Below, piece by piece: positions 7,952-64,000 of a DNA stretch of 64,000 nucleotides. The DNA is from Petrosia ficiformis. Lineage: Eukaryota; Porifera; Demospongiae; Haplosclerida; Petrosiidae. The position numbers and the translations under genes were made by a program. The stretch spans positions 2,878,501 to 2,942,500 of the forward strand of contig OX345643.1 of the NCBI GenBank assembly GCA_947044365.1, in the 5' to 3' direction. The notes below the pieces were generated by a model. It did no database searches. It was not told where the DNA came from and saw only the letters and a list, made by a program, of their open reading frames with translations. Position 1 is the stretch's first letter, and each line of letters opens with the position of its first letter.

Positions 7952-10900
7952 CTAAAAATATATCTCGCGTTCGTAATGTTGTTGATAGGAGACAATAGCT
8001 TTCCATGTTGCCACAGCTTGACTGACAGTTATAGACTTTGGAAATCTTTTGCCTATATCAGGAAGCAAAGGATCTAGACCATACTGATCAAGATGTGCCT
8101 CCAGTGTATCAAGAAGTCTACAAAACAAAATCAGATGGAGGGTGTGGTTTAAACACACTGTCCAATGTATACAACATCATGCTTCCATGGCATATGGTAT
8201 TACTATTTATACATGTATATATTATTGATAATTATTCATACTCATAGTAAGACCTATTTCATATATGTAATAGTATTTGAACTGTGATATAGTCACTTAC
8301 GGCCAATCCTTATTCTGACAGTCTAAATGTCTGACACTAGTCTCAATGAACTCATAAAGAAGATTTAAGAATGGTGATAGATCGATACCACGAAGAAACC
8401 TGTTCAGTTCTCCTATCTGATCTTCACCTCCTTCATCTTTGGTTTGCAGTGGTTGAAGAAAGATTTCATGAAGTGAGTCAAATGGCTCCTGTTGAGAATT
8501 AATCGTTAAATAATTTGCCATATTCTTTTGTGTTGGATGATTGTATATAGATATGATGAACTCTCACCTGCTGAGCTAATGTCAAGTTCTTTGACATTTG
8601 CACAGACAAAGTTTCCCAAAGAGATAAAATATGTCCAAGATGACAATACTCCAAAGCCTGTGTGCATTTATTATAATTAAAAAATATATAACATTCTAAA
8701 TCATCCACACAAAGATTAAGATAGCAATTTACCTTCTTGCTTTTAAACCTGTCTTCTATTTTCAGAGCTCTCTTGACATACTTTCTCAACTCAATATTTG
8801 CATCTCCTCCACCAGAGGACAAGAAACCAATAATGATCTCAACATCATCTAGACAATCTCTGATATTCTGTGTAGTACGCAACTCATTGATGATATCCTT
8901 CTGTTCTCGATTGCCTAATTTTACCTGTAATACAATTATAAGTATTAGTTATATCCTGAGTACAAGGTTTATATTCAGTTTAAAGCATGAGGCATGAGGC
9001 TCAAGGGCACGTAGCGCACGAGGGCCAAATGCTTTAAAATGGATATTATTCCGAGCATGAGGGATGATAAATAGTTTGTGTCATTTGATTACTGTTTGGG
9101 GGTCATAACCATAACAACTGTATGACATCAAGGGCATTAATTAGCTACACTATCTAAACTTAAAATTCATTAACTAAAACCGAAGTATTATCTTGCCATG
9201 CTTTATCTGATTTCTAGCACTAGCAGTTTCTTTGATGTGCGTCATCATAATGACACAGTTGTAGTAGAATCACATTGAGTTGAAACTGAGCTGATCATAA
9301 ATTCATAGTTTTAAATGCACAGGTATGCTACTATGGGTTCAATCAACATTATACGACATGTTTTCCTGTATTACACATGTGTACAATAAGCCTTATTTGC
9401 ATTTCAATAGCAATTTTTAATAATTTTCTTAATGAGCTTAGTTTTAACTCAGCATAATACTACTCTAGAATGTGATCTCTTCCACTCTTCCATTCATCAT
9501 ATACTTTTTATCTTTTCTTATGTCAGTACTTATCCTCACTGTCTGTCTATTCATTACAACTCACCTGTGGTTTAACTTTCTTTCTGATGTTAGCAAAAGT
9601 CATAGCAGAATACACATCTTTCCTGTATACAACTTGAGGGATCTCTAACTGAATTAAAGGTTTCCCATGAATGAACCTATCTACTAGGTGCTTCTCTAAT
9701 GCAGGATAGTCATAGGTCACATCTTGACCTTTGCCATGACGTAGAGAGTAATGACAGTGAGAGAGAACAATGGATAAAAGATGATGTTCATAATCTAAGA
9801 GGTGACATTGTAGAATATGACTAACAGGAATCTTGTATTTACGGCACCTAAAAATGGAGTATTGAAAGTAACACAGAGAATAAACATTACACAAAGATGA
9901 CAACAATGAAAATTAAAACTTATTATCAAGTTGTCAAGATTGAAAATAATTACAATGCCATCATATAACACATTACTGATATTCAACAACAACAAACTGC
10001 AAATTGGCATCAAACGACATGGTTCAAAATAGAGACAGCAAATAGAAAATATCCTTACTCGGTCTTCTGTTTCTTTTTTAATTCTGAGTGACATTTTTCC
10101 ATAAAATCATTATGAGCTCCAACCAGTAAATCTACAAGAGCCACTGTACATACCCCTGGACCAGTGAGAGTTGGAATAAGATATGATAGAGGGAGAGAGT
10201 CATCCCAGGTTGTTTTCTGAAGATATTTGGGAGGTACATGAACACGAGCTAAGGTGGGAAGGAAAGAAATTAATTCACTTTTACTATTATCAAACATCAT
10301 GTGACTATATAGTCACTATGGTATGAATCACGAGCAACTAGTGCATTATACACACATCATCAATACAAGTGTTGAACTAAACATAAAATATAGAGCAATT
10401 GAATGTTGAATGACCCTCCCCAGTTGCTATAATTATAATTCAGAAGTTCAAAGACTCATCACCTGTCATATAAAAGAACATAATATAATATATAATTTGT
10501 AGCTATGTAGTGAATATATATACTATTATATAACCAAAACGTTTACAATACTAATTATAACTGTTTGGGTGGTGTACATTAACATTTTAGTTGTGAACAT
10601 TATATAATTATTTGTTACTTCATTTATAAGATATCTGGTTTTTTTTGGAGGAAAAGATTCAAGTTTAATTTACGCTATTATAATTTATTGGTATTAATTA
10701 TTTTGCAACAATTGTACGAAATAATGATAATGTTTTGCAACAATTGTTTCTATGAAATAGTGATTATATTGTGATGCATAACTCTTGCTTTGTTAGATGC
10801 AGGAAGAGTCTGGAAGACTGCATGAAAGAAGCCACACCTAGCGGCTTTCTTGCCCTTTGTCAGCTTCATAACTTTCAAAGTATACATGTTCAAAGCTTCT

Positions 10901-13900
10901 AACTTGCTTTGCTGGAAAGAGGAGTCGTTAAGACAGCCAGTGATGTAAAACTCTTGCTTCGTTAGATGCGGGAAGAGTCTGGAAGACTGCAAGAAGCCAC
11001 ATCTAGAGGCTTTCTCGCCCTTTTCTTGACCTTTTTGATAGCTTCTAGTATAGTGGAGACTGGAGAAAATATTAGTGAGTGCTTGTTCTTGCCACATCAG
11101 AGGTGTATAATACTGTATATACATGCCAAGTGTGGAAGTCCATGAGCGTCCAGATTTTGCGGTAGAGCGGAGTAGGACACACAAACAGAAATTTTTCCAA
11201 ACCGCAACCCTCCCGAGGGGGAGGGTCAACTATAATAATCATACCACATCAAGTATATAGTCAAGCAGTGAAATAACTGCTTGCTGTAGAATTTCATGTA
11301 TTGTGAAATATTACTAACCATATTCGGGCAGTTTATCTTTCACTAAAGTCCATGCAGTTTTAACACAATTCATTTTTTTACAGAACAGTCTCTTCTTGTG
11401 TTCTGTATGTGTGATAGAAAATCAGTCAGCCTAACTTTAAGACGACACACATATATTAACATACCTATCTTGAGTCCTCTCACAAAATCCCCTACAGTGA
11501 TCTGAGCAGCCTCTGTTTTGTCTAATCTCCTATGATATAGATCATAAAATTGTTGCTGGAGTTGTACAATACCAGGAATATATTGTGTGGCACGTAATAT
11601 AGGCTCCTGATAAAGAGATATATAAAATTATTTTTGAAAATTGAAAATGAAATAATTGTAATTTGAGTCTATACTTCTCACAAGGAAAAAAATTACTGTT
11701 TGCTGACATTTCAATTTGTTTTAAGACTTTTATGTATAATTTATATATATAATAATATATATATACTTTATACCTCTTTCAGGAATTCATTCAGAATAGG
11801 ATATTCCCATGTCCTCAGTGTTTGGGAGAGATGTTCTAATGTAATTCTTGATCTGTAGCTCCAAAGATGAGGTAGGATTGTATTTGGACTGACAGATACT
11901 CTCTCATATACCATGTAGAAAAGACGATCTCGATCTGAGTTAATATATGTGTGAATAATATCCTGATAAAAATGTCATATTAACCTTCTTTCTTGTCATT
12001 CAAAAGAAGCTGTGTTGCTTCATGTAATGATGTGTCCAATTGCTAGATGTTAGAGAAAACAAACATTCATTATAAAGTGTGTAAATCCTTTGATTTCTTC
12101 TTACCTTGAGTGTTGGTTGTATGTATGCATCATTAAAACATTTTTCCCACTTCTCTCTTGCTTCTTTTGCGAGAAGTGTTGAATATGTACCCATTCCACT
12201 TGCTAAGAAAATAAAACACAACACATAGTGTTTAGATATAATTATGAAGAAAAAATATCCCTATGATTGCTTCGCAGTATCCAAAATTCAGTATTCATGG
12301 CTGACTTTCTCATGTCTGAAGTGTTATAGTTATTGTTTTGATTATCTACTCTTCTTTACTTTTTAAAGAGCTTTGGTTATGTGCTACACCTATTAATTGA
12401 CCAAACTCCACGAACGACACAACTTCCCACATAACCCTTTGAGTTTTATAAGGTTGCAATTTTACAACTTCCTGGTCAGAAAGGAAGTACAACCTACTTA
12501 ATAGAATAGTGGATCCTGTACCACACCCCAAATTACTGTAGGGTATACCCATGTTGTGGCGGCATGTTGGCATTCTATTGTTCAAAAATCCCACACTTTG
12601 TTGGATGTGGTCAGACAGCACTAATCAAGTGTCCATCCTTTGATGTAACTTTGAAGTTAGTTTAGGGCACTTTAAAAAAAAAAGTAAAAGGTGTTAGAAT
12701 AGCATGTTGATGTATGTGTGATGTATACACTTGCTTTCTAGCTTGTAATAATTTCAAATAAGTCTGTGGTACAAAAGTGGAAGGGTTAACTATGTATACA
12801 ATGCATACTCACGCAAGTGACACAAGAATATATATATACATACATGTATGTATAAACATACATCAAACCCGTGGTAAGGTAATCATAGGGATGGCCCTAC
12901 CGGCCATAAAAATGCCATATTTATTTATCTTTTTTATTCACATTGAGCTGGATTCTTCAATACCACATCTCTGAGTACTAAGTGTAAGAGGAGGCATGCT
13001 TCATCCTTGCTTTTCCCTGTGGCACAACTCAAAAGATTTATATCATGTTCCAGATGTTGCCAGAAAAACATCGGCATTTCTCTTGGCCGAACCTGCGAGT
13101 TGATTAGGTCCAGTAGACCTTCAGTTGCAGTCTGGAACAAAACATTATTCATATAATTGTGAGCAAGCACATGCCTGTGCTGAATTAATGAATGGATGGA
13201 TGGATGGATGGATGGATGGATGGATAGATGGATGGATGGATGGATGAGTGGATGGATGGAAGGATGGATGGATTAATTGATAGAAGATAGAAACATAGAT
13301 CGATGAATGTTTGGATGAATATAACAAATAATTAACAACAGTACACGGTTTTGTCTTGATAGTTATACCCTGTACCTCATTATTACAAGAGGCCCAAATA
13401 AGTGAACAGTGCATTAAAGCTCTCAGTATAGCACAAGCTGCAGGAGAGAGAGTCCTTTCAGGTGTGGGGAGTGCCTCACGTTGGCCAGGTCCTCCTAAAC
13501 AATAACCTGTCTGAGTAGCATCATTCCTAAAAGATAGCAAAAAGACATACAAAGAATATTTCAGTTAACAAAGGATTCATTAAACAATACACTTCTATCT
13601 ACATTATATCACACCATTAGTTATATATTACTAAGCACTAATCCCATAATATATTATATCAACTCACGTTCTAGCTACACGGTTACTTGGATTTAATATA
13701 TGGTCCTTTCCTCCAATTGTTGAACCACACTGAGGACAGCTATACTCTTGCATCGGCTGTCCACACTATTGACATTAAAGAATTAGACAAAAGCTAACAT
13801 GAATGATATAACTCACTTCAGATACAAAGTATGGATGACCACGAGGACATTCTGTAAACAATGATGGGAAAAGAGCATAGTTATTAATCATATTATATAT

Positions 13901-16900
13901 GTTTAAACTACCATAAAATTGTCCTCCAGCTTGTCTAACTTCAGGCAGTGAGTCATCTGGCATAGTGGGTAAGTATGCTCTCTGAAATAAAGTATAATTA
14001 CTCCTGTTGTATAATACATTAACAATATATAGTAACTACCTTCAGATCACCTGGAGTGTTCAGTATTTTAACAAACGGTTGTAGAATTTGCAGAGCACTC
14101 TTACTATTGAAAACAATTGTAGCATGTACAATAACATCAGCCAGGATCCTGTTCTGAGGATTTTGTCTTGGGGTTGGCAACATGGGTTCCAGATTTTCAC
14201 AGTGTGTGTTTTGAATTAGAGACTGGGCAGCCCACATTAGCTGCATAAATAAGAATGGCAATAATAGGTTTTGTAATAAAACTTAATGTATGCTTGCCTG
14301 TCTGTTTAGAAACCCATGTTTCTTTGTGAATTTATCAATCTCAGCCTTAGCTTCATCCTAATGTAAACAAAATTAATTTATATGTATATGATCTAACAGT
14401 GTTTCATTCCTAAATATATCATTTTTCGTTAGCATAATTAATAGCATTCAATATATTCCTAATTCAACAATGAATTACTTCTTTTGACTTATAGTCGTTA
14501 GCTTACTTTCACCATCTTAACTTCATCTACATGAACATGACTCAGTGTGACGACTTGATACAATGCTAGCATGTAAGGGACTGCTTCTTTAGTAGTTAAT
14601 TTCTGTGTTGGAAATAAATGATTCTAACTTACTTCAGTATTATGATTATCATAACATACTCCTAATGTATTTTCTACTTCCATTCCATAAACAGCATCAG
14701 TTAGTTGTGTTCGAATATTTCCATATATAGGATTATAAATAACAAATGGATCACTGGTCTCTTGTTGTTCCTGAAAGACAAGATTAATAATTTATAATGT
14801 ATTTTGTGAATGCCCATAACAAACACATGCAGACACTCGACAGTAATTTTTTGTTTGAATATTTTGTATTTACTTTGAAAGTTTACCTCTTTAGATCTTC
14901 TCAAGTGAACAGGAACAACCCATTCCATAGAATGATCAGAGATCAAATTCATCAAAAAGGTCATCCCATATTGTCTTACTATATGTTTCACTAGAAATAT
15001 ACCTGGTCCTGCATCTTCAACATTGACAATCTCGTCTTCACAACAACCCTTTGCTGCTTGTAGAAACAGCTGTGCCTCATGAGTATAATATCCCTTCCTT
15101 TTACCCTCAAACTGACAGTGAAGAAGCTCTGCAACAACAAATTTAGCAAAACGCAACTTAGCTACTCCTTCTAGATATGCAAGATTAATATTCTCTGAGG
15201 GGTTAGGATGTATTCTAAGAGCTTCAACTCCTTCATTTAGTAAACGCTGAGCATGTGGAATCCTTTCTTGAAGGGAGGAACAACTGTATTGTTTATAAAT
15301 GGCATCCTGAAGTAATAAAATTAATCATAGAAATAAATAGAATTATATAAATATTAATTGTCTTTACCTCTAGACACTGTATACAAAGGAGACAAAGCTC
15401 CTGATCATCATCTATTATGTGTCTTGATTTTGAGATGTAATCATCTAAGTATCTCTTAACATCATCAGTACTAGCAGAAAAATGTAGTATACTAGTATAA
15501 TATATGGAATACTAACTACAATCATTGATAAGGATATCATTGTAGTTATAACTATATGCATGGGTTAATTGTATAAATGAGCTAAAGCAATCTTACTTGT
15601 GTTCCAATAGTAACTGTAGTAAGAATGATCTGATAACTGGTACCCTATCAGTCTTGATCTTATCAGAGTAACTGAACTCTTTGGTTTCATCTTTTTCAGT
15701 AAATACCAAAGTAAGTAATTCACATATGAGAGCTGGCTCAGGAGGTTTAGGCTGTCCAAAACAGAGAGAAGATACCACTTCCATAAAGAAAGATTTACAA
15801 TATTCACGAATCTTCTGCATCACTGGTCTGTATATATAGTATGAATAGAAACAGGAGTAGAAATATAATACACAGATACCTGTACTCCTTTTTCTTCTCT
15901 AGTTCTGCATCCATTACTCTTAATGTCTTTTGGACATAAATTATCGTGCTAGCTTTGGTGAAATCAGAACGCTTCTTCATGTACTGATATATGTAAGCAT
16001 GTCAACATAGCTGTATCATCTGTTACTCAACTTACCAGACTTAGTCTTCTTGCATACATTGCTAAATCTTCATATTTCATTACTAAATGTTCAACAAATA
16101 ACTCAATGACTCTTAAAGAATGCCATGTACATCTGAAATCAAAAGAAACAGTAAAATAACAAACACAAAATGCTAAACTAGAACTATAGAAAATTATAAC
16201 TCAGCCAAATATAACCCTCACCTGATTTCTTCAGCCATTTTATTACCCTGACTCAATGTTAGTATGGAGTCAATCGCATTCTGACATAACTGTATTTTAA
16301 TGAGTCTTGATGGTATGTGTTTCCTAACATCTTTATCAAGAGGCAAGGTGAGATGTTCTAATGCAACTTTAACAGCATAAAGTTGAAGTTCCATATGTTC
16401 ATTACTATATTGTTCTGTGTTTAAACAAAAACATAATAGGTCACTAGAGAACATAATAATTGGCAATCATTACTAAAACATAGTTTCCTATAATTTGAAT
16501 TATATATAATATCAACCATACTACTGCTACAATACAATACTTAAAGCGTTTCATACTCCATACCTATACCAGTTCCTAATTGAGTTAGGATTCCAGGTAA
16601 GTGAGAGGTAATTTGTCCAAACCCCATGATCTCTTTCTTGGAGTGTTGATAAGCAACATGGACAGCTACTAGTTGTGAGAGGAGAGATGGTCTTGTGCTA
16701 GTTAGATCTGGACCTGTTACAATGGTATGGAGGGCTCTTCCTATGATCTGCAATATAAAACATTTATTATTTCCATGTAGTTTTTATCTTTCTATCAACT
16801 ATAATTCATCTATCTTTCAATATAATTATAAAAATAATGTCTCTATCTAGTCATACCTCATATTCTTCTTTTATCATGTGATGAGGAACACGATGGACAC

Positions 16901-19900
16901 TCCTTAAGAAGTCTTGCAAGTATAACTGATATAACTCCTCCCAGTGACTAATATCAACTTCACGTAACACAACAGCTACAGGATCATCTTCCAGTAGTTC
17001 ACATAGTTGTTTGTGTACTTGTTGTTCGTGACCACCTTCATGAGAAGAAAAGAAAATTATTTCATGATCAGAATCATGTGTTAAAAGTTATACCTGTTAC
17101 AGGTTTTGCATTGTCCCAATTAGAATCAATAGCTTCCTTGATTAACCAGAAGAAAGGAAATTGGCAATGATAATTTTCTCTGTACTGTTGTCCCCCAGGA
17201 TGAATATCTTCACTCCTGCCCATTGCAATAGCATCATAACTGAACTGACAGAGCTTCTCATTAGTGAAAATCTGAAGCCACAAATGTTGTAGTGGAGTAC
17301 ACTCCCCTCTGAGAGAACACAAGAGAGATTGGATTACACATTACATTGTTCAGTAATTACAAATTGAAATACCTATTTCTGAGTAAATCCAAGTTTGAGT
17401 ACCGATCAACAAAGGACAGAATAGCAGAAAATATAGGTATTATAACTTCATCAAGTCTTCGTGATAATACATTCTGGAATGTTCCACCACTTTGAAGATT
17501 CCTGCCATTCAGAGCTTCATTCAACACCCATTGTCTGTCATTTATAACATCATCCCTTTCTTTTAATAAAATAGCTATCTGTTTCACTAAAGCTCCATAG
17601 AAAGTCCGATCATCTAGAAAATAGATCATATTGTAAACATTACAAAATGTCTGTAGTAATAGAAAAAAACATTACTAACCTAGAGGGAACTGAGGGTTTT
17701 GTGGTATGAGATCTAAGAGGACTCGTATACGATGTGCTGCCCATTCTTTCTTAGTGTTATCTTTCTCTGCAATTTTGGCTACTGCTGCTTGTATACAATG
17801 GTAGAGTCTATAACATTGATTGTGTTGTTTCACTGTTGGGTGTTGTGGTTCCACTTCCATTGGACTTATTCCATACAACTATAGTATTATGAGAAAATGA
17901 AAATTCAGCCAGCCTGACAAACAGGATTGATAGAAATCATCCTTACATACCTCTCTTTCATCTCTACTCCTCTCAAAATCTTCCTCCATTTTTTCATCAG
18001 GCATATCTTCAATCTGTTCACTCTCCATGAACTCCAGACCTATAACCTCCCCAGGTGGAAGGTCAGATTCAATGTGTTGCAAAGCTTCCTCTTCAATTCC
18101 TTTGTATTCATATTCATTTTCATCTAATTCTACATTTATTTCAATATCTTCAACCTCCAAACCACTGAATTCATTTCTCTGCTCCTCTACTTCTAATTCA
18201 TTTCCTGTTCTTGAAACAGGTTCCAATACTCTTCTTTTTGAAGTGAAGGGCATATTATAAAATAGTTCACTAATAGGTGCACTAAGAGCTTCATCAAGAG
18301 TGAGGGCTGCCTTTGCAGGAGCACGAATATCATCAATATGAGCTGATATCCAGGCACCACCTTGAAATCCAACAAATGAGGAGCTTTCTTTGTCTTTATC
18401 AACTCCTCTACGAGGGAGATGTATGATGAAGAGTACATGGGTTGTTCCTTGTCCTGGTCTTCTTTGTAAGTTTGCTTTTTCTCTTTCATCATCAACGCGA
18501 TAACGAGCACATGCTATCAGATCACCATAGAGGTGTCCAGAATCACATTGAATGATTAAAAGTTTATCTCTAGCTTCATGAGAAAAAGCTGGGCTGCAGA
18601 ATAGAATATATAATAATAATAATTATACTTATAGTCATATACGTGATCATTCCTACATGACAATCACATGATCTTCACCTGACTTTGTTGCTAAAGTCTA
18701 ATTCTGTATCAAATTCCTGTAACAGAAAACAGGACACTAAGTTTTCTTCAATTTCAATGCATTGATATAACTGTGTGAGCTCAACATTTGACAGGAGATG
18801 ACTATGTGTGGTTACCTAAACAATGGAAAGTGTAATAGATATATACACTGCAATACATAATATTCAACAGATAACCTTTATATACCTGTATCAGAAGACC
18901 ATCTGAAATTTCAGTATGAGTCTGTAAATGATGCTGTAGAAATTGGACAATTGATCCATGACACTGTTCAGAGAAATATATTTCTGACAATTTCTTTGCT
19001 TCTTCAGTTAAATTAGTACGCTGTAATCGAATCAAGGCATCTGGAGATGCCATCTGTAGCAAAATTTCACAACTACAATTAAATACAGCTGCTTTCCATT
19101 CCTCTGTTTCAATGAACAGTCGTTGTCTCTTCAGCTGTTTTGTTGCTTGGAAGATAACAGAAGCTGGTGTGTCATTCTGAAAACCTACAAAAGCATCTTG
19201 AGTTTTGAAGCTGTGAAACAGAAGAAAGTAATGCTGTAATTATATAGCTCTCTAGTCCTACAGTTATCTTTCTTAAATGTTTTTTATTATCCTTTAAAAT
19301 CCTACAGTTAATTGTCTTACCTTGCATTTGTATCTGTTACATTGCTAAACTGTTTGATCCATTCTTCAAGTCTTATCAGCACCTCTTTCTGCCAGTCCAG
19401 AAGGACAGTCTCTGTCAAAACAAAATGTTTTTCAAGCCGATTGATAAGAGGAGTTGGAAACTTCTCATAAACTGTTCCTTTTTCAGCTATCAGGATTAGC
19501 CTAACAGAATAATGAATTAATATAATAATCAGTGACAGATATTAAACCTCAGCCATATTGATAATATATGGAAAATATGTACATACTTGAAGTCATTATG
19601 AACACGACATTTTACTCTGTGTGTTTGTAGACCCAAGTCAACATAGCGAGTACCTCCTGAGACAATATAATATTGGTTTAACAGGTCATACAAACTCTCA
19701 TACAGGTTTTCTAAGTTAAGTAGGATAACAGTACGACCAGTTTCCATGCAGATCTTAATCTGGTTAATATTCCGGCAAACTTGTGTGTATTCACGATCTT
19801 TAGGGAATGAGCTACCAAACAAAATAAAAGGCTCCATTCTTCGTCTGCTGACAATCTCTCCTCCCATATCCTCTTCTAAAACATCAGATATTGGAACATT

Positions 19901-22900
19901 GGATGAGAGACCTACAACCTCATGAAGATAGTGTTTAAGGACCTGTAATGCTGCATAGTTCTCAGTTAAGAACAGGAGATAACGATTCTCTCTGCAAAAA
20001 AATGTAGAGTCCTCAAATAGCAAATTGTTATGTAATAATAAAGTATATAACATGATTGATCAAATCATAATGGTCTAATAACTAATAATTGATCACAAGT
20101 ACTTACCCATGCCATGTTATTTCTTTTGTACTTAAACTGGTTTTAATGAGTCCCAAAGGAGTACAGTCAGGAGTTAAGATTTCTCGTTCCTGCAAATGTA
20201 AAAGGTGATACATACATAAGCAGCACCATAAGCTATTTATATTTTCTTACCTCTGTTGATGCATTACTCAGGTCTGGTTGTGTATCAAGTTTACCCAAAT
20301 GAATCTTAAAAATTTCATAAGTGTTCAAACTGTCCAGTCCACCAAAGTTCCTTTTTATTGCATGTTCAAGCTGTGGTCCAGTTGGGGGACGGTTTGACTT
20401 CTCACACATCCAGTAAAGCATTTTAATGAGACTATAGTAATAAATGATAAACAAATTTGATTACATTGTTTCTCATCATCAATAACATCATGTAAGGTAA
20501 TTACTGATTTGGCGATGATAGCTTTACTGTGTTTCTATTTCACCTGTAAAAATCTCTCAAACCAAAAAATGCTCTGTCTTGCTCGTCACAAATGTTTTTA
20601 TAAGCAGCTGCTAGTGGTTTGAAATATGATTTCAATCTATCCTTCACAGGGTCATCTACACGATTAGAACATATTCCCCTGAAAAGAGCACAAAGAGAGA
20701 CTCTAGAATGGTAACAAGTTTTATAAAGTAATTGATATACCTAGCAGAGAGTTTTAGTTCATCCTCATCAGGATCCCCTCGTGTTACCATGACACCACGA
20801 TTCATCTTGGCTGGATCCAAAGCCCAGTTTGAAATACCAATGAAAGCAACACGTTGTTGCCGATCAATAACCTGTTATTGTAAAATTATACAGTACATAC
20901 ATGTGTATATTGCTAATAAATACAATGGACAATATATACCTGTTGTGAGTCATCACCTCCTTCTGTTCCATCTTCAAGAAGCGGATGAAGAGCTTTTAGA
21001 GGTAAATTAGGAGAGTCTTCTGCCAGTCCTACTTCATCAAGAACAACAACTGACACATAATTAGCTGTGTCCTGTTTCTTTTGGAAACTCTTGGCAGTGT
21101 TGAAGATTTCTATAACACTTTCTGGAGTTGAAAGCTGACTGCACTGGTATGAGAACATGTGGATCTGAAAGAGAGTACATGCATATCCATCAAGTGTCAT
21201 TGCTATTAATTATATTATGTGCATCAAAGATTGAGGTGAATCGAAATATTTTTAGCACCTCTTTAAACTCTTTCAGTAGTGGTTTTTCTGAAAATCTTCC
21301 CAACATAGAATCGCCAACAATAGATTTTGCAAGGGACTTTGAACTACCAGGTTTTCCAACAAGGAATAGTGGAATCCTGAGCTCAATACAAACAGCCATC
21401 ATGAATACATTCTCTCTCAGAGCTGCATTCCTTGCAATGTTAGGTCCAAGTTTCATATTTTCAAGAAGAACATCTTGACACCTGAAATATAAAACTTAAT
21501 GCATGGATTCAGAGAAAGAGAATCACTTAAAAGAATGTAGTATATAAAATCCTGAAAAGAGTGACAGACTAAGTATACATACCATCTCATTTCATCACAA
21601 AACTCTTCCCTTCCTTGAGGAAGTGCTAGTGGAGCTCTGAACTGGTACACAACAGCATCTTCATATTCTTCTCTGTCTTGTAGTCTGGCATGATAACATA
21701 CACTGAGTGAGAGGATTAATGCTCTAGTAATTGCATCAGTAGCTTGTTTCCCCTGATGAAAGAAACAAAACAGGGGAGATTGAATCCCATCCTAAAAATC
21801 TTAATTGTTAAACATACCTCTCCTTGTGCTTTTTCAGCAACTAGATCTTCAAACGTACCTGCTTTCTCACAGAAGTATCGAAAGACAATCATGGCTCTCT
21901 CTACATCTCTCAAACTCACAAAACTGCATTCATCCTACAAAAGAAAACACTGGTATATGCAATGTAGCAATAGTATATTCAGTAACTGACTTTTCTATTC
22001 CTCATGTAGCTTTGATTCCAAGCTAAGACATGAGTAACAGCTTCTATGACATTTGTTCTTCCAGTAACATCAGCTATAGCACTGCACCTTCCTTTAACAA
22101 TCTGTCTTGTATAATCCCTCTCTGTAGCATTATTCAACTGCCCAAAATCATACACTAGAGGTCTCATACTTGGAGGTAAATCAAGTACCCTGTATACTAG
22201 CTGGCGAAGAGGTATTTTACCTATTATAAGAGAGAGACATAAATATAATTATTAAGTAATAAAGTTGATTATGAATGTAGTAGTATTATCATAGTTAGTA
22301 CAGAATACATTCCAATCTGAAAGCTACCTAATTTTTGTTGTGTTTCAGTTGCTTTTACATAGAAACCCAGACCAGCTGATTCCAGTTTCTCAATCATTTC
22401 TTCTGTGTGTCTATAGTGTACATATACAAGTATATAGATCATTCCATATACATATAATACAAACAGTAGCTTACTTCTTGTATGGATTGCATGCTGCAAT
22501 GAATTTAACATTTTTAGCAACTGGACGACCATTGACACGACGATCACACATGACCTCTTTAATAAGACCAATAGATTCTGTAGTATTAGCTTCATCAAAA
22601 AACAGAACAGTGTCTATATTATGTGTGTTCCTATTTTCAACTGAGATGTTTTCAGCATCCTTCACTTTTTTAATAATGTCTTCTTCTGTGGTACCTCCAT
22701 GGACCTGATAAACACAGCATCTCTTATAATTATAAACAAAAACATAAATTGTTTTTATGGAGCATTAAACAGTTTGATATTGCACTCAAGCAATGAAGGT
22801 CTACATTAGATTAATGTACTCGCTTCACTCATGTATTATCCAACCTTGACCTTTATTGATAGTACATGAAAATGATAGGGGCTCAATGTTGTCACGTGAT

Positions 22901-25900
22901 ACATACTATGATATCATATATTAATTTTATATAAGAATAGTTAACCTTCATAATCAGCATGTTCCTAACATGTGCTCCTCCCTGTCTACATCCTTCAGCC
23001 GCTAAGTCACACATGAACCTAATCAGACGGGTTTTACCACAACCAGTTTCACCCATAATCACCACTGGAATATTACATCTGAATCTCATATGTATTGCCA
23101 ATATCTTTATAACATTATCCATAGTCAGGACATAGGATGGATCAGGATCTGTCATCCATTCCAAACCCATTACCATGCCAATCTTTTGAATCATTATACC
23201 CTTATCCCAAGTCTGATAGTTCTCTGAGAGATTCACCTGGTTTTGTAAAAGCCCTACACAAAATGTAAACATTACAAAATCCCATAATCCAGTTTAATTT
23301 TATATACCAGCATAAAGTTGTTGGGTCATGGCTGCTCTCTGAATGATCTGGTTTCCCACTGGATCCAAAAGATCCCCATTTCTGTTGGCACTGAACCCAA
23401 CAAATGTAATACTCATTCCGTCTTCATTAAAGAAGAGATATGGATGATAGCTAAGGAAAGATAAATACATAGGGTGCTACATGAGGTATTAAAACATGGT
23501 CATGTGATTTAGTGCCTGAGATACAAAGAAAATATCGTGGCAATGATGGCACATATATGCAGGCAATTGTGCATGTGAATTTAATAATATCGTTGTATAT
23601 AATTATTAATAACTTTGGCACCAGACTTGTATTGTTTATGATAATGGCTTGTGCCTAAATGTCTGATTGAACAAATTTGTAGTATTCATGACAATGACTT
23701 GTTTAAATGTGGTCTGAACGTCTGATGGAACTAATCAATAACTACACTGTAAAAACTGATTTGTTATTTTGACCAGGTTATATGAGTTTCATTTTTACAA
23801 TTATAAACATCAAAGATAAATAATCTTTATGAAGCCAAGCACAAGCTGCAAAACTAGATGTCATTCATACAGCTTGATAGTAAGTGTCATTGTCGAAGCA
23901 GCTAAATTATTTATGTCCAACATTGCCATCAAAATCTCATGAATATCATTATGTGGTTCATTTAGGGTACGGTTAGGGTTCCCTTGTGGTTAGGGTTCAA
24001 TCAGTATCAAAGTGATCTTAGTCTTTGATCAATCTTGGACATCACTCAGCTAAATAACTCTATATGTACAGTAAAACAAGACATCATTAATCCTCGGTGC
24101 GCATGCGCAGCGAAGGATTACGGTAGTTAGTTGTGTCTGTCCGTCTGTCTGTCTGTCTGTCTGTCTGTTACTACGAAATAAGCAAAGTCGTTCGTCTAGA
24201 GATCGAAATTAGAGTATCAACATGACGTAAATTTCACACTCTTTCTAACTGATGTGTGAAATTTTATGAAAATTCTTGGTTCAAAAGATATGGCGTTATT
24301 TATACTTAGGCTAACCTGGAGGGTCTTTTTCAGTTCAAAAAGGTGTTGTTATACAGGAGTACACATACAGAAAGTTACTGGTAGGTGTACTACTTTGCAC
24401 AAGCTGTATAACAAGAATTCTGGATATATAAAATTGCAGAGTCAGCCAAATAATATTAATAATTATATGTGGTGGGCAGAGGTTCCTGCCTTTGGGCCAC
24501 GTGGTAGGTGAAAAGGATTGTACTGCCAGTCATAGTCTTGACGGTTTAATTAACAGTGAGCTTTTTCTGTAATTGTTTTTGTTTTAATAGTTGTACCTCT
24601 TTTTTAAATCATGGCTCCATATAAAAAGTGTCCACAGTGTCATACTAAGTTGCACATTAGGTTATGGGCCTGTAGTTGTGGGTATAGCTACTTTTGCAAT
24701 AAAACGTAATAAGCCTGTTTCACTGCAAAAATTAAATAACAAAACAGAGATAAGGTTTATTAGAAAAAATGATAGAGAAGTTGTGTCGGAGTTATGTAAC
24801 ACCACCGAGGATTCAGCACTTTTGTGCTTTCATTCATACTGCTTGACAGTAACAGTGTCACTGTCAAAGCAGCTAGTTATAGTCACATGATATAACATAA
24901 CTCTGTGCTATAGAGGGCACACATTATTCATACATTTTTTAGTGTTGTAATTGTGCTAACAAATAAATTAGTTATTTTAACAACTTTGTTTTTGCAGTGT
25001 ATAACTAACTATCAACTGAACTGAACTAAAATTCTTATAGCTTATATAGTTATAAAAACTGAAAGAGCATACATAATCACAATTGTTCCATCAGGTATTC
25101 AGGCCACATTTAAACAAGCCATTGTCATAAATAATACAAGTTTTTTGAAAACTTCATAAAACAAGGTTTATGGTATATATATATATAAACTTAGCATGCA
25201 TGATGTTTATTGCAGCCATCCAATTAGGTAGTCATGTATGTGTGTAGTCAGTCTAATTAGGTAGTCATGTTACCCAAGACCAAAAGGCACAGTTTAAAGG
25301 CTAGGTAGGTGCTATGGTGTTGATTAGTCTGGTGCATTAGAATGACTTCAAACAGGAGTGGCCATTCTCATGTGAAGCTTAGGTGCACATAGTTCAGGAG
25401 GAAGCTCTTGCAACTGCAATGTCACTTTGTACTGAATTGCTGTAAGCTGTGTTCAATCATTGAATTACCCACCCTTATCGCACCACTTATTTTATCATTA
25501 TTATGTTCCATTAGTAATCATTTCGAGGTGGGCAATACCCCTGCAACAGGCTTGCAGGCAAAGACGAGCACCTTTTGCCAGGTACTGGGGATCTCCAGGG
25601 GCTAATTGTCTGCCCCCAAATGTCTGGCAAAAGTAGTGTTTAAACTAATAATAATAACTGGCAAAATCGTCAAATAAAAGCATATAAGCTGCAAGATGTC
25701 TAAGAGACCTCTGCCACTTTTGGTGCTAAAGTTAGGTTGCATTAAGAGTTATCTAGTTTATTTATTGCGATTGCTTACTTTTGTTCCCAATGTTTTCTTT
25801 CATCAATCTCATATTCCTGGAGATCTTCCATTTCTTCCACAATGCTTTCCTCGTTCTCAGCAGCAACTTCTCCTTTCAGTGAAGACGTAGCAAAATCCTA

Positions 25901-28900
25901 TTGTGATATGAATGAATACTTTAATATCACTTTACAAGAACTGAAAATATATTTCACTGACTGCTAGAAAGCAATCAAATTGACAAACGGGATCAGATGA
26001 ACAAAGTCCGCACCTTTGACATTCTGACCATAAAGTTCACTACAAATGTCTTGAGACCAGACATTACATCACCAACAATATCCTCATCACAGTAGATAGA
26101 CTTCTCACAAGATCTCAGTTGAGTGTCAAGGAAACAAACAAAATGTTTTATCTCACCCCACGAAGGATCTTTAACTCCACATTGTCTGCCAGAGGAAATA
26201 AAGAGTAAGTTTGGCTGATATTTGATTACATTGTCAAAACATTCATGTGTGTACTGTACAGAATATTTACAGCAGCAGGATCGGCTAAATATGATATGCT
26301 TCACTTTGTGACAAATTTAGCTGAAAGCCTCTAAAAATTGCACCCAAATGCACGTCTTAGAACACATTTAAATTAACTACTACCAAGCTAAAACATGTCC
26401 CAAAGCAGCCAGGTAGCTTGATATGTCCTTGTTCAAAGAATGAGGGGATAGTACTCACCCTAGCAACACTTCCAAACACTCGATTGGTCTACCTTCAACA
26501 GAATTGTTTGGATAAGTAAATCTGTCTAGTCGTACATGACCAATGTGTCTTCGAAGGTATTGAAAGACACGTTGAAACATGGAACTCTTGAATTCTTTGT
26601 TATCCATTGACATAACATAAGGATCTACATATGGAAAACAAACAAAAATATGCAATTTATAATAGAGATTTATTATCTTTGTAAACCTTCTTCACTATTC
26701 CTCATCATCGTTAATATTGTATTCGGTGAAACACACTCTATTGATGGAAGAATATTAAGCAGTGCAATAGTTCGTTTAGCAGGAATCTGTTCACTCTAAT
26801 AACAAGGAAGGAACTATAAAACTAAATATAATCAATAGTGTAATTACAGAGTACCTTAGGAATGGTTACTTCAATGGTATACAAATGAGCAGGATGACAT
26901 CTCCATATTCTACCCTGACTATCACAAACAGCTTGAAGTATTAGCAAAGAAAACAAGATCGAATCCACTTGCCATAGGACCTATAGAAATATACTCATTA
27001 ATCTTCAAACAATAGCAGAAAGAAAACAGAAAACAGAAAACAACACAGCATGGATGTCATTTCTTACACTTGGAGAAATATCCAGATGAAAGATAGTAGC
27101 TCTTGTGTTAGAAAACTCTCCCTTCAGTGCTTCTACAATAGTATCAGTCGTCACTTTGGGACCATGAATTGGAATAATTATCTCATGAAGACCGACATTC
27201 ATCTTGGATGCTAAGAGTTCCTTCATACGACAAATACATAAAGATTTACCCATTCCAGCTCTTTCTGAAGTTACTACTCTGACATTGGACCTAAAAGAGT
27301 ACGATAACATAGCTTAAGTAGAGGATATATACATCATTTCTATAGAAAATATAGGTACATGTAGCTTGTCCACATTTCATGAAAAATATGTCAAAATATA
27401 ACTGGAATAATGCTTGCGTATAATTGATATCATTCACATAACAAACAGTACTAACTTATCAGGATCTACTTCCGAGGCCAGAGTCGTATGTCCTACAGCT
27501 CTTGATTGAGCTCTTTGAGAAGATGTAGTAAAGTGGTTCTTCAAATATATTACAAACTCTCGGTCTGAGTAGACAGTGATAAGAGGACGACGATATAACT
27601 GTAGTTTTGAGACCATGTGTGATTTATCTTCATCTTCATTACTACAAATGATCACCAGTCTGTAGTCTATAGAAAACATTCCAAATCAACAACAATAAGC
27701 TCACTCCTGAATTTATTCTTTAAGTCAATGATATTACATGTATATACTTCAGTATCTCTCACCTTTCTTTCCCTGAGATAATTCTTGTAAATTTCTAAGA
27801 GCTTTATCACATGTTTGATAAGACAGTTTCTCAGCATGAACCAGACAAAATATCCTAAAGTGGTTTGGATCCCCAAGAGCTCTCTTCCATAGTAAAGTCA
27901 CCTCCTCATCAGTTGTCTGTTCACTACATAACAAAACTTCTTCATAAGTAGGCATTGGAAGAGTAGTATCCTTGTTGTACAAAGAGAGAGTACTTTTGAG
28001 AACATTCTCTGAAAAAAAAATGCAAAATTTTAAACTTGATTTCAAAGTAATAAGATACAAAAGGGAAGAGTCTCCCAAAGTATATGCATGTTACTAACCT
28101 GGTGGTACTACAAGTAGATTATATTCACCAACTTTGAGTCCTTCAGGAAAAGTCCTTTTCTGTGATACTGGATCTGCAAAAAAATAAGGGCATTTCTTCA
28201 ATAAAGACGATATGATGTGCTGTGTTTTTTTTTTTATTATAGCATACATTTGCAAGCTTTACTGAGTTGCTGCAGCACCATTCCGAGTTCTAGGAGAGGT
28301 AGATAGCTTTTGGTTGAAGTGTCACTTTTAATGATTTCAATCTGTTCACTGAAAGAGTAAAAAAAACATTATTTAAACCATTAATTAAAACAGTTTTGGA
28401 CCCTTCCTCATTTCCATGATGTCAATTGTCTAAAAGACTTCTTTCGCATACCTTGTTGGAGATATGTCTGATCCTCTACTGTCTTGCCTCTCATATCCTG
28501 CTTCTTCGACTGTTGATTCTTCAAGACCCATTCCACTGTCCCTCATTACAACCTCACGTGATAGATCAATAATTTCATGAGAGAAGAGAATAGAGGATAG
28601 AGAAGCTTCAAAGAGTTTTCCTTGATCGCTCCTCTCATTTAGGTAGTCTAATGCAAGACTAATATCATCAGGATATTGCATAATTGCTTCTATACAAAGG
28701 TCAAGGTCGAATCCTGTATTATGAAGCTCAACAACATCTGGGTGATTATCATCTACTGGAATGCGTTCAGTAATTAGCACCTTCACAGATTTTTGTTGTA
28801 CTCCTGGCTCAATTTCCATTGGAGGTGGTTCAATAAGAGTGTTTTCATCCATTTTAACAGCTTCCTCCTCCTCTTCCTGTTTTTCCTCTTCTGATGCTTT

Positions 28901-31900
28901 GTCATCATCGTCACTATGAACAAAATATGGTTGTGTCGTAGCATCACTATCGGCTTCACTATCAGGATAAACGAAATCCTCTGTGTGTTCCAGACACCAT
29001 TCTTCTACTACTTCCTGTACATCTGGTTTAGCACATCTGTCAAAAGCTAGCATTATCAGTTTTCTCTGGAATCCATTCTCCTCTTTCAAATTTTCTATTA
29101 TAGCTTTCTGTTTGTCAGTCAGCTCTTCATATATCAGTTGTGGTGCAGGTGCATTCAATGCTACTTCAGTTTTCATAATGTCTTCAAACACTTTGGACTT
29201 CATACCAGGCATTCTTTTGTTATCGTTATATACCTCTGATCTTTGGTGATGTATATCATATTCCACAGCTTGTGTAGTGAGATTAGTATATGCATTGGAT
29301 TGAGGGGGTAATGGAATGGAATGTGATAGTTTAGGTTTGTTATAACTACCAAACTGTTGTGCCTCTGCCAATGACTGCTCTTGAAGAATAGCACATACAA
29401 TTTGTATTTGTTCCTTCACATCACTTGCTGTCACCCCTCTTGAAATACTTTGAAGAAGTGACATAACCTCTGGATTAATCGGTTTGTGTTGATCATCTAC
29501 ACACTTAAACTGTCCTAGCTCTTCACACAATGATAGCAATTGAGGAGTTGTGAAATAATTCAACTCGTAAAATTGATTTCGCTTATCCTCAACTTCTTTC
29601 ATCCAGTTTTCTAAATCGTTCTCCATTTCACTGGCTTGAGCATTGAGATGTACAACAACATTCAGGAGTGAGCATTGGAAGATATAACTCCACCCCATGT
29701 ATTCACTATTACCATGTTGTTGAAGTGATATCAGGTTATCAGCAATTCGACAAACACTATGAAATGTCTAAATATATAGAAGATTGATAATCTTTGAAAG
29801 TAATCAATACTCATTAAAACTCACATCCAGGAACACATCTACTTCTTTTCTTTCTTTTGATTCCCTTCCAGTTATTAGCACCAGCTTACTTTCCAAATCC
29901 CTCAGCTCATTAAGGGTATATTGAAGTTTAGCAATTTTCTTCCGTCTTGATTGCCTCAGCTTCAAATGAATTGCTTCAGATCTGCTGAAAAGAATTCCTT
30001 TCCCCTTCGAACCAATCTCATAGCAACCATACTGGTTTATGTTTCTCATTTGACCAAATGATGTTTTCTCCACTGACCCCTGTGTCTCTTTAACTGATTG
30101 ATACCAATCAATTTCCTGCTCACAACTTCTCTGCATTAACAAAACAAAATTGTGGTTACTATTAATGAAATCATCTTTTCTGAATGTATATACACTAACT
30201 TACCATCATCTCTGGAAGATCAGGAGACAGTTTAAGTGTGTCCCAAAGTGTTTTACAATTTTCTTGTAATTTCTTGTACCCAGCAGTTTTGGGAAGTTTG
30301 TAAATGAGTGGACCAAAACCACTTCCAACTGTTTTCAGGTTGGATAGCTTGTCATTAGTAAGATCACCCTCACCACCGGCACCAGTTGCAAGAGCAATAT
30401 TTACAAAGTTATGAAGGTCGTTTACATCTGAGAGATAAATTGATTTTAATAACTGTCAAATGACAATGCAGTAGGAGAAAATTACATGAATATTATAATG
30501 CAGCTATAGTGAAATAACATATCAATACCAGATAAATATTCAAACCTTGAGTTGCCTTTCTAATCCATTCCACAATCTTCTGGCAATCAGCAAATGCTTC
30601 TAAACACTGTTTCTTCTTCACATCAGTTACATATGCTTTCAAGAACTTGCTTGCTTCAACCACAGAATCATCAATTGACCTCAACGTCTGTTCACCCAGA
30701 GAAACAAAAGCCTATGGTATAAAGAGATTTTTTAAAATCACTGTATAATTTACAAACACATTACCTGTTTAGCCACTCTTTCAACCAGACCAAAGTCTCC
30801 AGTAAGACCCAAAGCATCTCTAATATTGATAAAAGCTAGTGCAGCTTCGTGATAGTTACACAACTCCCAGTATTGCCAAATACGATCAATAACACCCTTG
30901 ATCCATTTGAAATCATTCACTTTCTTTTTCTGGCACTCACTCACAGCACAATAAAGATTTTTTAAGTCTTTTGACAATAACTTCTGCTCACAGTATCTGT
31001 TCTGAAACAGCCTGTCAACCTCAAACAATTTAATCTTCCATGATCGAAGATCAACTAGCAGCCTTTCACATGTGCCAAGTACAGGTGTCCAAACAAAATC
31101 AATAACTTGCTGGAAAGTCAGGGAAACTCTTGTTTGGCCTATTTCTGATAGTTTGTCTTGCCAGAACTTGTTGAATAGATCACTCGGGTAAGTGACAGAA
31201 AATCTGTTGAATTGTTCCAGGTATGGTTCCAATGGTTTGGCAGAGCTGAAACACGAAACGTTACATGAACCATCGGGTGAAATCTTACATAGTCTATTGA
31301 TGTTCTCTTTCTTCAAGATTTTTTGTAGTTCATCAGAAAGCTCACTGTGACCTAAAAAGAAAGAAAGTGAGCATGTTTTGTATTTTATTACATCACTTAC
31401 CTTCAATACGTATAGTATTCATTTGTGTCATGAAATGGTTAAGTTTGTCACGATATGAAGAAAACTGATCAAACTCTTGAAGACGCATTTCCAAATTTCT
31501 CTGAAGTACAAGAAATGATTCAGAAGTATTTGTTTCAGCAGTAGCAGCCTCACAGAGTTTCTTCATTTGTGTAAACTTCGATTTAATCAGCTCAAGCTCC
31601 ATAACAGTAATATTTCCTGAACTGATTTTTTCACACATGCCTTCAAATTGACTTAAAGCACACATGCAAATAAGCTGCCAATCTTCATTATCACCTTTCT
31701 TTTTAACTTCAGACTGCGTGGCTATATGAATTGATTTAATTAATTACATTGGTATCAATGAACCTATATACATGTACATACCATATATCCTGATGAATCC
31801 AGGCCATAACTCCCACTCTAACAGATCACTAAAAGGTATCTCTGAAGTTTCCTGAAAATCAGGATATTTTTTCTGTAGAATATTTCCCATAAGTCCAGCA

Positions 31901-41961: not shown

Positions 41962-41985
41962 TATGTGGTCACGAGCTGTTTCTAG

Positions 41986-42997: not shown

Positions 42998-43087
42998 CTG
43001 TTGGTATGCTTGGCTGAGATCTAATTTGGAAAACTTCTGCCCTCCGGTTAAGGCAGTTAAAAGGTCTTCTGGTCGAGGAATTGGATA

Positions 43088-44017: not shown

Positions 44018-44189
44018 CTTGTTTGAAGGCTATCACTGTCGAATCACAGGTTGAAATCAAGTAAAGTTGAAGTAGTGGCTTCTACAACATCGAGCTGGCT
44101 CTAAGCTTTCTACCATGACTGTCAATTTCTAGCTCCACCTATCATTTCATGCATGCCACAAAACTAGGATTTTAACCACTGCGCTTCTT

Positions 44190-51060: not shown

Positions 51061-51992
51061 CTGTTTGTCAAGAGATTAATAATTATCATTATATAGATCA
51101 GCACTTATGTGCATAATAATCACACCATTTATAAACAGCTCAGTGTTTTACTTTAGATACTATATAAAATAACTCAGAATGTATTTATCGTGTCTCTTTA
51201 ATAATTTATTAACACAGATCCTTACATTATTCACTGAATAAAGCTAATGTTTATTGGTAATATCAATCTCACTTGTAAAGGGAAAGTCACTCACTTTAAA
51301 GAAGTCGAAAGAGGAGTGAATAAACAGCCTATCTCGACTATCAAAAAATAAACAGCCTATTTTGAACATCAAAACCCAAGATGACTCTAAGTGACCTTTA
51401 TGATGTTGATTTTGGTGGACAAGAGGAATAGTGTTTCCTGACTCAAAGGTCACTGCATGTTTAGTGTGGAATGTTGGAAAATGGTCATTTAGTAAATAAT
51501 ATGTTTAGAGTGTAAGGGGGACTGGCTACACAAGACTACTAATTACCCACGTCATTCGTAAATTTCACCTAAAAAAAAATACAACCAACCTTCAGAACAA
51601 CCAATGATGGTGAAAGTCAAATAGCCGAAGAGAGTTTGAAGTGATCCAAGAAAGATACTAACTTCAGAAGAAGCAATATGAATGAATGTTCAAAAGTGTA
51701 TATAGTAATTGTTATGGGCATCTCATAGACTTTCATAAGGCAGTGAGGCAAAACAGATATAATTAACTTTGACTAGAATCAATCCCAGAGAACAAGTTGT
51801 AAAGTGAGGAAGAGCTATTGAATTGAGAATGTATAAATTAGTTTTAGAACTTCAACATTAGAAAAAACAAGGGAATGTTTTAAAGCCAGAACAAGTCACT
51901 CGAATAAAGATTTTTTGTAGATTATTAAAAAAAATTACAAATCACTACCATTATTAATTTAAATTGTTGCGTTTCACAAAATTTAATCGAAT
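51061..51992. other. 3' flank of gene C, no gene recognised
   Basis: Counterpart of 7011-7951 with numerous differences. It has no conserved open frame and presumably contains the gene C 3' UTR. Confidence 0.6.
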
Positions 51993-63900: not shown

Positions 63901-64000
63901 ATATTGATAATATATGGAAAATATGTACATACTTGAAGTCATTATGAACACGACATTTTACTCTGTGTGTTTGTAGACCCAAGTCAACATAGCGAGTACC
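51993..64000 (-). CDS. RNF213: Gene C: C-terminal part of a second RNF213-like gene (runs off right edge)
   Basis: Exons correspond one by one to gene B 7952-19660, offset 44,040 to 44,210 bp. They run from the stop at 51993-51995 to the segment with [13 protein letters not shown] sequence at the right edge. All exons stay open, including both RZ-finger exons (about 57845-58085) and the RING-less junction (about 60030-60345). Identity is very high from about 54180 rightwards, and lower in the last four exons and the 3' flank. One donor differs (CCACAA|GTAAGT against CCACAG|GTGAGT) but remains canonical. Gene C has five extra codons near 63321, an in-frame 15-bp difference. The gene looks functional as far as it is visible. 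AAA3, AAA4 and the N-terminus lie beyond the window. Confidence 0.92.
57312..57462. repeat. (GGAT)n microsatellite in gene C intron, expanded
   Basis: About 150 bp of GGAT repeats with ACGA and GAGT interruptions, against about 85 bp in gene B. This is one of the largest length differences between the two copies in the high-identity zone. Confidence 0.95.
57845..58095 (-). other. RNF213: Gene C: RZ-type zinc finger
   Basis: Same two exons and ligands as in gene B (CPRGHPYF, then [14 protein letters not shown] and the IGGKDH end), with only silent or intronic differences noticed. Confidence 0.9.
63488..63602. mobile_element. Copy-specific insertion with poly-T head in gene C intron
   Basis: Compared with gene B at about 19262, gene C has roughly 115 extra bp. 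It begins with a T run and TTTTA repeats (about 63488-63535), followed by unique sequence (CTCAATAGCCAAGGGCTAA). On the minus strand this reads as a short insert ending in poly-A, as expected of a SINE or truncated LINE. Target duplications are not clear. Confidence 0.6.

What the first reader, a model, noticed from the sequence alone, without database searches (positions are those of the whole stretch)
15820..16440. RNF213 orthologue without a RING finger but with an intact RZ finger
Seen: LFVEHL (about 16110) and [16 protein letters not shown] (about 15790) flank a 60-residue interval with no Cys/His cluster, across clean splice junctions. Known: in human RNF213 the equivalents LFVEHV and QMCNSFFVDLVSTICF are separated by about 125 residues that include the RING. 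All other E3-module segments are colinear and the RZ ligands are complete. Human RNF213 has been reported to retain ligase activity without its RING and to need the RZ finger for lipid A ubiquitylation. A natural RZ-only member would be an independent test of that model. Inference: the RING was lost here, or was gained later in other lineages.
Basis: partly seen in the sequence, partly recalled or inferred. Interest (0 to 1): 0.9.

Follow-up and report, generated by a model that had tools for sequence, protein, structure and literature searches.

The report
Sponge RNF213 gene lacking its RING
A sponge gene for the giant immune enzyme RNF213 lacks the RING part that gave the protein its name but keeps the RZ zinc finger thought to do the chemistry, so nature has made a version much like a mutant built in the laboratory.

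Summary
On the minus strand (about 38048 to 7952) lies an RNF213-family gene. Between LFVEHL and EYCKSFF it has 58 residues with no Cys or His, crossed by two 52-base introns too short to hide a RING exon. The RZ finger keeps its zinc ligands, catalytic Cys and proposed general-base His.

It is not unique. The same genome holds at least 19 RNF213-like loci: 15 without a detectable RING, 4 with one. In the C2 paralog the RING is one 195-base exon between phase-2 introns; the window has a single phase-2 intron at that place. This fits clean in-frame loss of one cassette exon.

Trees built without the RING columns join RING-less demosponge genes and this genome's RING-bearing paralogs in one clade. 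A tree in which the RING-less demosponges split off before all other animal rows is rejected (AU p = 0.0007). Seven of 7 named non-animal relatives with an RZ show no RING.

Best reading: RZ is old, the RING was added in animals, then lost in demosponges and probably again in corals. This agrees with published delta-RING mutants that stay active. No transcript or enzyme data were available.

The parts
7952..38048 (-). RNF213-family gene, copy 1: model of 84 exons, 5671 residues
   Evidence: Home-made Viterbi gene finder. A few exons are doubtful (for example 24722-24692, 23515-23496, 12896-12869) and one short intron was retained near the RZ.
35995..38048 (-). first coding exon with N-terminal double zinc ribbons
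   Evidence: Pfam DZR 9.5e-10; exon
22970..23253 (-). exon with AAA3 Walker A motif (GETGCGKT)
   Evidence: AAA numbering by analogy with mouse RNF213
21259..21481 (-). exon with AAA4 Walker A motif (GKPGSSKS)
16036..16132 (-). exon D, LFVEHL, helix before the RING site
15880..15983 (-). exon E, last exon before the RING site, ends in phase 2
15828..15879 (-). 52-base phase-2 intron at the place where paralog L020 has intron, RING exon, intron
15597..15827 (-). exon F, EYCKSFF, first exon after the RING site
13817..13851 (-). RZ finger, first part ([11 protein letters not shown]: zinc ligands C and H)
   Evidence: exon bounds; one search merged it with 13981-13912 by keeping a short intron
13668..13765 (-). 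RZ finger, second part (catalytic Cys, CPQC ligands, GGKDH histidine)
59807..60037 (-). exon F of the second tandem copy, also without a RING before it
51474..64000 (-). second tandem RNF213-family copy, cut by the window end
   Evidence: 93-99% identical in pieces to 7437-19654; model

Best explanation
A RING-less, RZ-bearing member of the RNF213 family (giant AAA core + E3 scaffold + RZ). SHOWN in sequence: the RING is absent from the DNA at its site; a paralog in the same genome carries the RING on one phase 2-2 exon at exactly this intron; the RZ finger is complete. INFERRED: the ancestral animal gene had the RING exon, and a demosponge lineage lost it in frame, which joins the two last helices of the E3-back directly, much as in the engineered mouse delta-RING protein. 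The protein most likely works as an ATP-gated transthiolating E3: ATP in AAA3/AAA4 activates the E3 module, an E2~ubiquitin docks on the RING-free scaffold, ubiquitin passes to the RZ cysteine and then to the substrate with help of the GGxxH histidine. The substrate is probably microbial surface or pathogen-vacuole material, by analogy with mammalian RNF213 only.
For: RING absence at DNA level. Intact RZ residues. Colinear E3 module with mouse RNF213. Exon order D-E-F against D-E-RING(195 bases, phase 2 at both ends)-F in L020, and matching phase-2 splice signals around the RING in L021-L023. Tree: 11 demosponge rows, 9 RING-less and 2 RING-bearing, form one clade (SH-aLRT 100, 99, 99); RING-less demosponges as outgroup to all other animal rows rejected (p-AU 0.0007) and RING-less demosponges as one clade not rejected (p-AU 0.47). 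dN/dS 0.29 over 1482 codons against L011. Mouse delta-RING keeps wild-type-like activity (PMC7311170 section 8); RZ Cys and His essential (PMC12075652 and PMC11549300, passages).
Against: No transcript or enzyme data. Trees are quick ones; the groups tested were chosen after the first tree was seen; only 6 of the 19 loci of this genome and 50 of 196 proteins are in the tree. The C2/C14 branch is long and its place inside the demosponge clade unresolved, so two independent RING gains cost no more steps than one gain and one loss. Several RING-less paralogs have a damaged RZ: L009 Phe for the catalytic Cys, L019 Tyr for the His, L012-L014 without GGxxH, so not every RING-less copy can be an RZ ligase. 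Halichondria P0005 has Tyr for the Cys. Against L010 the 118 RZ codons give dN/dS about 1.0, and the two window copies 0.44 overall. The RING of L021 scores below Pfam's cut-offs, that of L020 just above one.
Confidence: 0.78

Rival explanations
1. Primary absence: the RING-less demosponge genes descend from a stage before animals acquired the RING, and the RING-bearing C2/C14 paralogs belong with other animals or gained a RING on their own.
For: Non-animal relatives with an RZ give no RING hit (7 of 7 named). C2/C14 is on a long branch and unresolved inside the demosponge clade. Two gains cost as many steps as one gain and one loss.
Against: All animal rows except RING-less demosponges as one clade is rejected (p-AU 0.0007). 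A second gain would have to hit the same site with the same phase-2 boundaries. Homoscleromorph sponges carry the RING (P0044, P0045, P0046).
Confidence: 0.14
2. The RING exon exists but was missed: an unannotated exon, a misassembly, or a RING elsewhere in the protein.
For: No RNA was available; the gene model has small flaws.
Against: The interval is contiguous DNA with 52-base introns, the same in the second copy. RING profile over 19 locus stretches and genome-wide RING search hit only the four C2/C14 loci. The N-terminal Cys clusters match double zinc ribbons, not RINGs; my RING profile finds none in the whole model protein. Amphimedon models lack it too.
Confidence: 0.03
3. The gene is decaying or is no longer an E3: the RING-less copies act as AAA scaffolds or are on the way to pseudogenes.
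For: Several paralogs have damaged RZ residues (L009, L012-L014, L019). Recent near-identical tandem copies are common in this family.
Against: The window gene keeps an open model of 84 exons and all six RZ residues. dN/dS is 0.29 against L011, 0.39 against L010. Amphimedon P0001, RING-less, keeps the RZ as well.
Confidence: 0.12

Closest known systems
Mammalian RNF213 (PDB 6tax, 7oik, 8s24)
   Same: AAA core, E3-back, shell and core, RZ with the same six key residues; E = 8.9e-56 over the E3 module
   Different: Has a RING between the two last E3-back helices (PMC7311170); the window gene does not
Engineered mouse RNF213 delta-RING (residues 3941-3999 replaced by a short linker, PMC7311170)
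   Same: RING removed at the same junction, E3 scaffold and RZ kept; the mouse mutant stays active in autoubiquitylation
   Different: The sponge gene is natural; its activity is untested
RING-bearing paralogs L020-L023 in the same genome
   Same: Same exon order around the site, RZ present
   Different: Carry the RING exon; L022 has Ser for the RZ catalytic Cys
RING-less RNF213-like proteins of Amphimedon (P0001, P0002), Geodia (P0004) and Halichondria (P0005)
   Same: Same shortened interval of 73-82 residues; one clade with the window gene
   Different: P0005 has Tyr for the RZ Cys; the Geodia model ends before the RZ
RZ-bearing AAA giants of plants, fungi, a ciliate and Naegleria (P0143, P0160, P0163, P0152, P0183, P0148, P0117)
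   Same: AAA core plus RZ, no RING hit
   Different: E3 region before the RZ hardly alignable; some have CxCG in place of CxxGH at the start of the RZ
ZNFX1
   Same: RZ finger (PMC11549300 passages)
   Different: A helicase protein, not an AAA giant (recalled). Two loci on C7 with RZ hits in long open frames may be ZNFX1-like (identity not tested)

Membership tests
RNF213 family (AAA core + E3 scaffold + RZ) | AAA3 and AAA4 Walker A motifs in one giant chain | tested here: met
   GETGCGK and GKPGSSK in order in the model protein
RNF213 family (AAA core + E3 scaffold + RZ) | E3-back, shell and core colinear with mouse RNF213 | tested here: met
   Two phmmer stretches, query 6-206 and 257-775
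RNF213 family (AAA core + E3 scaffold + RZ) | RZ finger with zinc ligands, catalytic Cys, general-base His | tested here: met
   Pfam ZnF_RZ-type 9.5e-19; residues read
RNF213 family (AAA core + E3 scaffold + RZ) | RING between the two last E3-back helices (present in vertebrate RNF213; 15 of 104 named animal proteins listed have an RZ and no RING hit) | tested here: not met
   counts. It is therefore filed as a RING-less variant, not as a RING-bearing RNF213.
RNF213 family (AAA core + E3 scaffold + RZ) | CBM20 carbohydrate-binding domain | not tested
   Exons after 35945 look CBM20-like by eye only; the domain in human RNF213 is reported in PMC11549300
RNF213 family (AAA core + E3 scaffold + RZ) | ATP-dependent transthiolating E3 activity | not testable with these tools
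   Needs protein
RING-type E3 ligases | RING finger | tested here: not met

The most novel reading that the evidence does not exclude
RNF213's name-giving RING is a late animal add-on to an old eukaryotic RZ-only machine. It sits on one frame-neutral exon that has been discarded several times (demosponges, corals, perhaps amphioxus and scallop) and may also be skipped by splicing in living animals, giving RZ-only and RING+RZ forms. Because a bacterial antagonist is reported to bind the RNF213 RING (PMC12662631 passage), losing a dispensable RING could also be a host's way out of an arms race. This sponge genome, with both forms side by side, would be a natural experiment on what the RING is for.
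Probability: 0.4. Interest if true: 0.75.

Novelty: new variant of a known kind. Interest (0 to 1): 0.58.

Why it matters
RNF213 is the moyamoya disease protein and a broad anti-pathogen ubiquitin ligase, and no bona fide substrate of its RING is known (PMC11549300 passage). Natural RING-less, RZ-intact genes kept by selection are independent support for the view that the RZ on the RNF213 scaffold is enough. Paralogs with and without the RING in one animal give a comparison in which the RING's role could be sought. The result also suggests that the RING is younger than the RZ.

Tried and rejected
Hidden RING exon in the 52-base introns or elsewhere in the gene: rejected. The first gene-finder run skipped exons D and E and part of F, the second over-split; the third was used. 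In L021-L023 the gene finder skipped or cut the RING exon although it is open with splice signals, and in L018 it invented exons between E and F; these places were read by eye. P0042 was first taken for a choanoflagellate from its id style; its sequence groups with the homoscleromorph Oscarella. 'All RING-bearing rows one clade' was rejected (p-AU 3e-11), and so was 'all RING-less animal rows one clade' (p-AU 1.8e-6).

Rows dropped: for I listed seven ids (P0166, P0176, P0078, P0006, P0012, P0071, P0032) as ambiguous or possibly exon-skipped models; P0032 was not in the alignment, so 56 rows became 50. The mixture-model tree dropped eight more (42 rows). Public RING-less models P0006, P0012, P0032, P0074 and P0075 could be annotation exon skips and are not counted as proven losses. 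Pfam gave no domain for the long exon 29767-28454. Structure prediction was not run: the spliced protein does not stand letter for letter in the window, and the returned homologues are over 1200 residues.

Literature: ten searches listed no paper whose title or abstract start is about RNF213 genes lacking the RING; three of them found no paper at all. Passages only were seen of PMC12075652, PMC11549300, PMC12234341, PMC9993606 and PMC12662631; of PMC7311170 passages and section 8. PMC12234341 (six salmon RNF213 genes) has no occurrence of 'RING domain'; PMC9993606 reports RNF213 expansion in symbiotic bivalves. The 2021 Nature lipid A paper was not looked up. Most subscription papers are not in that library, so this is weak evidence of novelty.

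Full report
What is there. The window is G000:C8:2878501-2942500 of an unnamed 191 Mb genome in 29 contigs. The nearest named relatives of the gene are Amphimedon proteins (65% identity to P0001), so I take the animal to be a demosponge (inference). A home-made gene finder gives an 84-exon, 5671-residue minus-strand gene from 38048 to 7952. It begins with double zinc ribbons (Pfam DZR), carries AAA3 and AAA4 Walker A motifs, and its E3 module matches mouse RNF213 6tax (E = 8.9e-56) in two stretches, query 6-206 and 257-775, that stop and restart on either side of the RING position.

The gap. Between LFVEHL and EYCKSFF lie 58 residues with no Cys and no His, in exons 16132-16036, 15983-15880 and 15827-15597, with two 52-base introns. 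From LFVEHL to SFF there are 71 residues; RING-bearing relatives with a complete interval have 135-144. Pfam sees only the RZ in the E3 module, and a profile of RNF213 RINGs finds none in the whole model protein.

The same genome has both states. A search of the genome with the SFF exon gave 17 loci; a search with an AAA segment added two on C4. These are lower bounds. A RING was found only in four: C2 (L020) and C14 (L021-L023). The other 15 are on C8 (9, two of them in the window), C13 (4) and C4 (2). In L020 the exon order is D, E, RING (195 bases, phase 2 at both ends), F. In the window it is D, E, F, with a phase-2 join between E and F. L021-L023 show an acceptor and a donor at the same phase around the RING. 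This is what precise loss of a frame-neutral exon would leave. Exon bounds are from models and splice signals, not RNA. The L020 RING passes one Pfam cut-off narrowly and the L021 RING passes none, though both show the full ligand pattern.

RZ. The window gene has CPRGH, the catalytic Cys (first codon of exon 13765-13668), CPQC and GGKDH. In mouse and human RNF213 the corresponding Cys accepts ubiquitin and the His is the proposed general base (PMC12075652 and PMC11549300, passages). Of the 15 RING-less loci, six (the two window copies, L010, L011, L017, L018) keep all six residues; L009 has Phe for the Cys, L019 Tyr for the His, L012-L014 keep the Cys but lose the GGxxH end, and L015, L016, L024 and L025 were not resolved. 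Of the four RING-bearing loci L022 has Ser for the Cys; L020, L021 and L023 keep it, with altered spacings.

Relatives. Three protein searches listed 196 proteins (the last listed 120 of 136 matches). I classified them with RING and RZ profiles built here, E < 0.05 (counted; the named groups were set by hand from the listed names). Of 104 named animal proteins: 70 RING+RZ+, 15 RING-RZ+, 5 RING+RZ- and 14 with neither. Of 13 named non-animals: 7 RING-RZ+ and 6 with neither. Of 79 unnamed: 24 RING-RZ+, 2 RING+RZ+ (P0042, P0078), 1 RING+RZ- (P0155) and 52 with neither. P0042 groups with Oscarella; P0078 and P0155 are of unknown origin and could be RING-bearing non-animals, which would weaken the statement that the RING is confined to animals. 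The counts are biased: two searches were seeded with RZ-bearing E3 modules, the first with this RING-less protein. Two of the 15 RING-RZ+ animal rows (Brachionus P0166, Hydra P0176) have Cys-containing remnants at the site and are ambiguous. By motif, 14 of the 15 keep the catalytic Cys; Halichondria P0005 has Tyr. Four coral rows (P0008-P0011) have a changed C..GH start of the RZ.

Repeated loss. Coral P0006 and its near twin P0007, amphioxus P0012 and P0017, amphioxus P0032 and P0029, and ground-squirrel P0074/P0075 against P0061 differ by removal of about the same block, with the rest running on. Some may be annotation skips and I do not count them as losses. They do suggest that the RING is bounded by compatible phases in several animal groups.

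Trees. With the RING interval removed, demosponge RING-less rows and this genome's RING-bearing rows form one clade (SH-aLRT 100, 56 rows and 1966 columns; 99, 50 rows; 99, 42 rows, mixture model). The trees use 50 of the 196 proteins and 6 of the 19 loci of this genome. In some searches the 12 outgroup rows, six of them unnamed or known by id only, are set apart with support 100. AU tests, on groups chosen after the first tree was seen: all RING-bearing rows one clade, rejected, p 3e-11; all RING-less animal rows one clade, rejected, p 1.8e-6; all animal rows except RING-less demosponges one clade, rejected, p 0.0007; RING-less demosponges one clade, not rejected, p 0.47. The simplest history is one gain before the sampled animals split, one loss in demosponges and at least one more loss in corals; the coral part rests on public gene models. 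Inside demosponges, two independent gains cost the same number of steps but would need the same site and phases twice. The C2/C14 branch is long and its exact place unresolved.

Selection. By the Nei-Gojobori method the window gene against L011 gives dS 0.27 and dN/dS 0.29 over 1482 codons, 0.27 in the E3-back part. Against L010 it gives 0.39, 0.28 in the E3-back part, but about 1.0 in 118 RZ codons with few changes. The two window copies differ little (dS 0.03) and give 0.44, which says little. Gene-model errors add noise.

Function. Ahel et al. [quoted passage not shown] replacing residues 3941-3999 by a short linker left wild-type-like autoubiquitylation, while an earlier larger deletion presumably disrupted the fold. 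The sponge gene has made much the same neat cut. Later work puts the catalytic Cys in the RZ, and finds RING inactivation without effect on ubiquitylation of Salmonella and Listeria but a partial defect on the Toxoplasma vacuole. So the most likely function here is RZ-dependent, ATP-gated ubiquitin transfer without a RING; for this protein that is inference. What the RING is for stays open. One clue is that a Shigella effector is reported to bind the RNF213 RING (PMC12662631 passage), so a lineage that can do without the RING might gain by losing it; this is a guess, untested here.

Verdict. It is a new variant of a known kind, of value as natural support for the RZ-centred model and as a paired system, with and without the RING, in one animal.

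Noticed in passing
window 7437-19654 and 51474-64000: Recent tandem duplication of the RNF213-family gene, 93-99% identical in pieces. An assembly duplication of two haplotypes is not excluded.
   Followed up: partly
L009 (C8), L019 (C13), L012-L014 (C8), L022 (C14): Paralogs whose RZ has lost a catalytic or base residue or the GGxxH end: possible pseudo-ligases.
   Followed up: partly
P0082-P0109 and other unnamed metagenome rows: Many AAA giants of about 3700-4700 residues related to RNF213 in AAA3-AAA4, with neither RING nor RZ hit: 52 of 79 unnamed rows. A little-known sister group, perhaps prokaryotic or protist.
   Followed up: no
P0080, P0155, P0078: Unnamed giants with odd make-up: P0080 (6818 residues, RZ and NHL repeats), P0155 (RING, no RZ), P0078 (RING and RZ, unknown organism).
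   Followed up: no
G000:C7:651320-651454 and 666664-666798: Two RZ hits in open frames of 1897 and 1879 residues, possibly ZNFX1-like.
   Followed up: no
window 40858-44029 (-) and 45977-47520 (-): Retroelement-like frames (Ty3/gypsy-like protease, reverse transcriptase and integrase; a separate reverse transcriptase), by eye from the ORF list.
   Followed up: no
window 6071-6475 (+): RecQ-like helicase start, by eye from the ORF list.
   Followed up: no
window about 13190-13290 and the matching place in copy 2 (about 57.2-57.5 kb): TCCA-type simple repeat inside an intron, longer in copy 2 than in copy 1.
   Followed up: no
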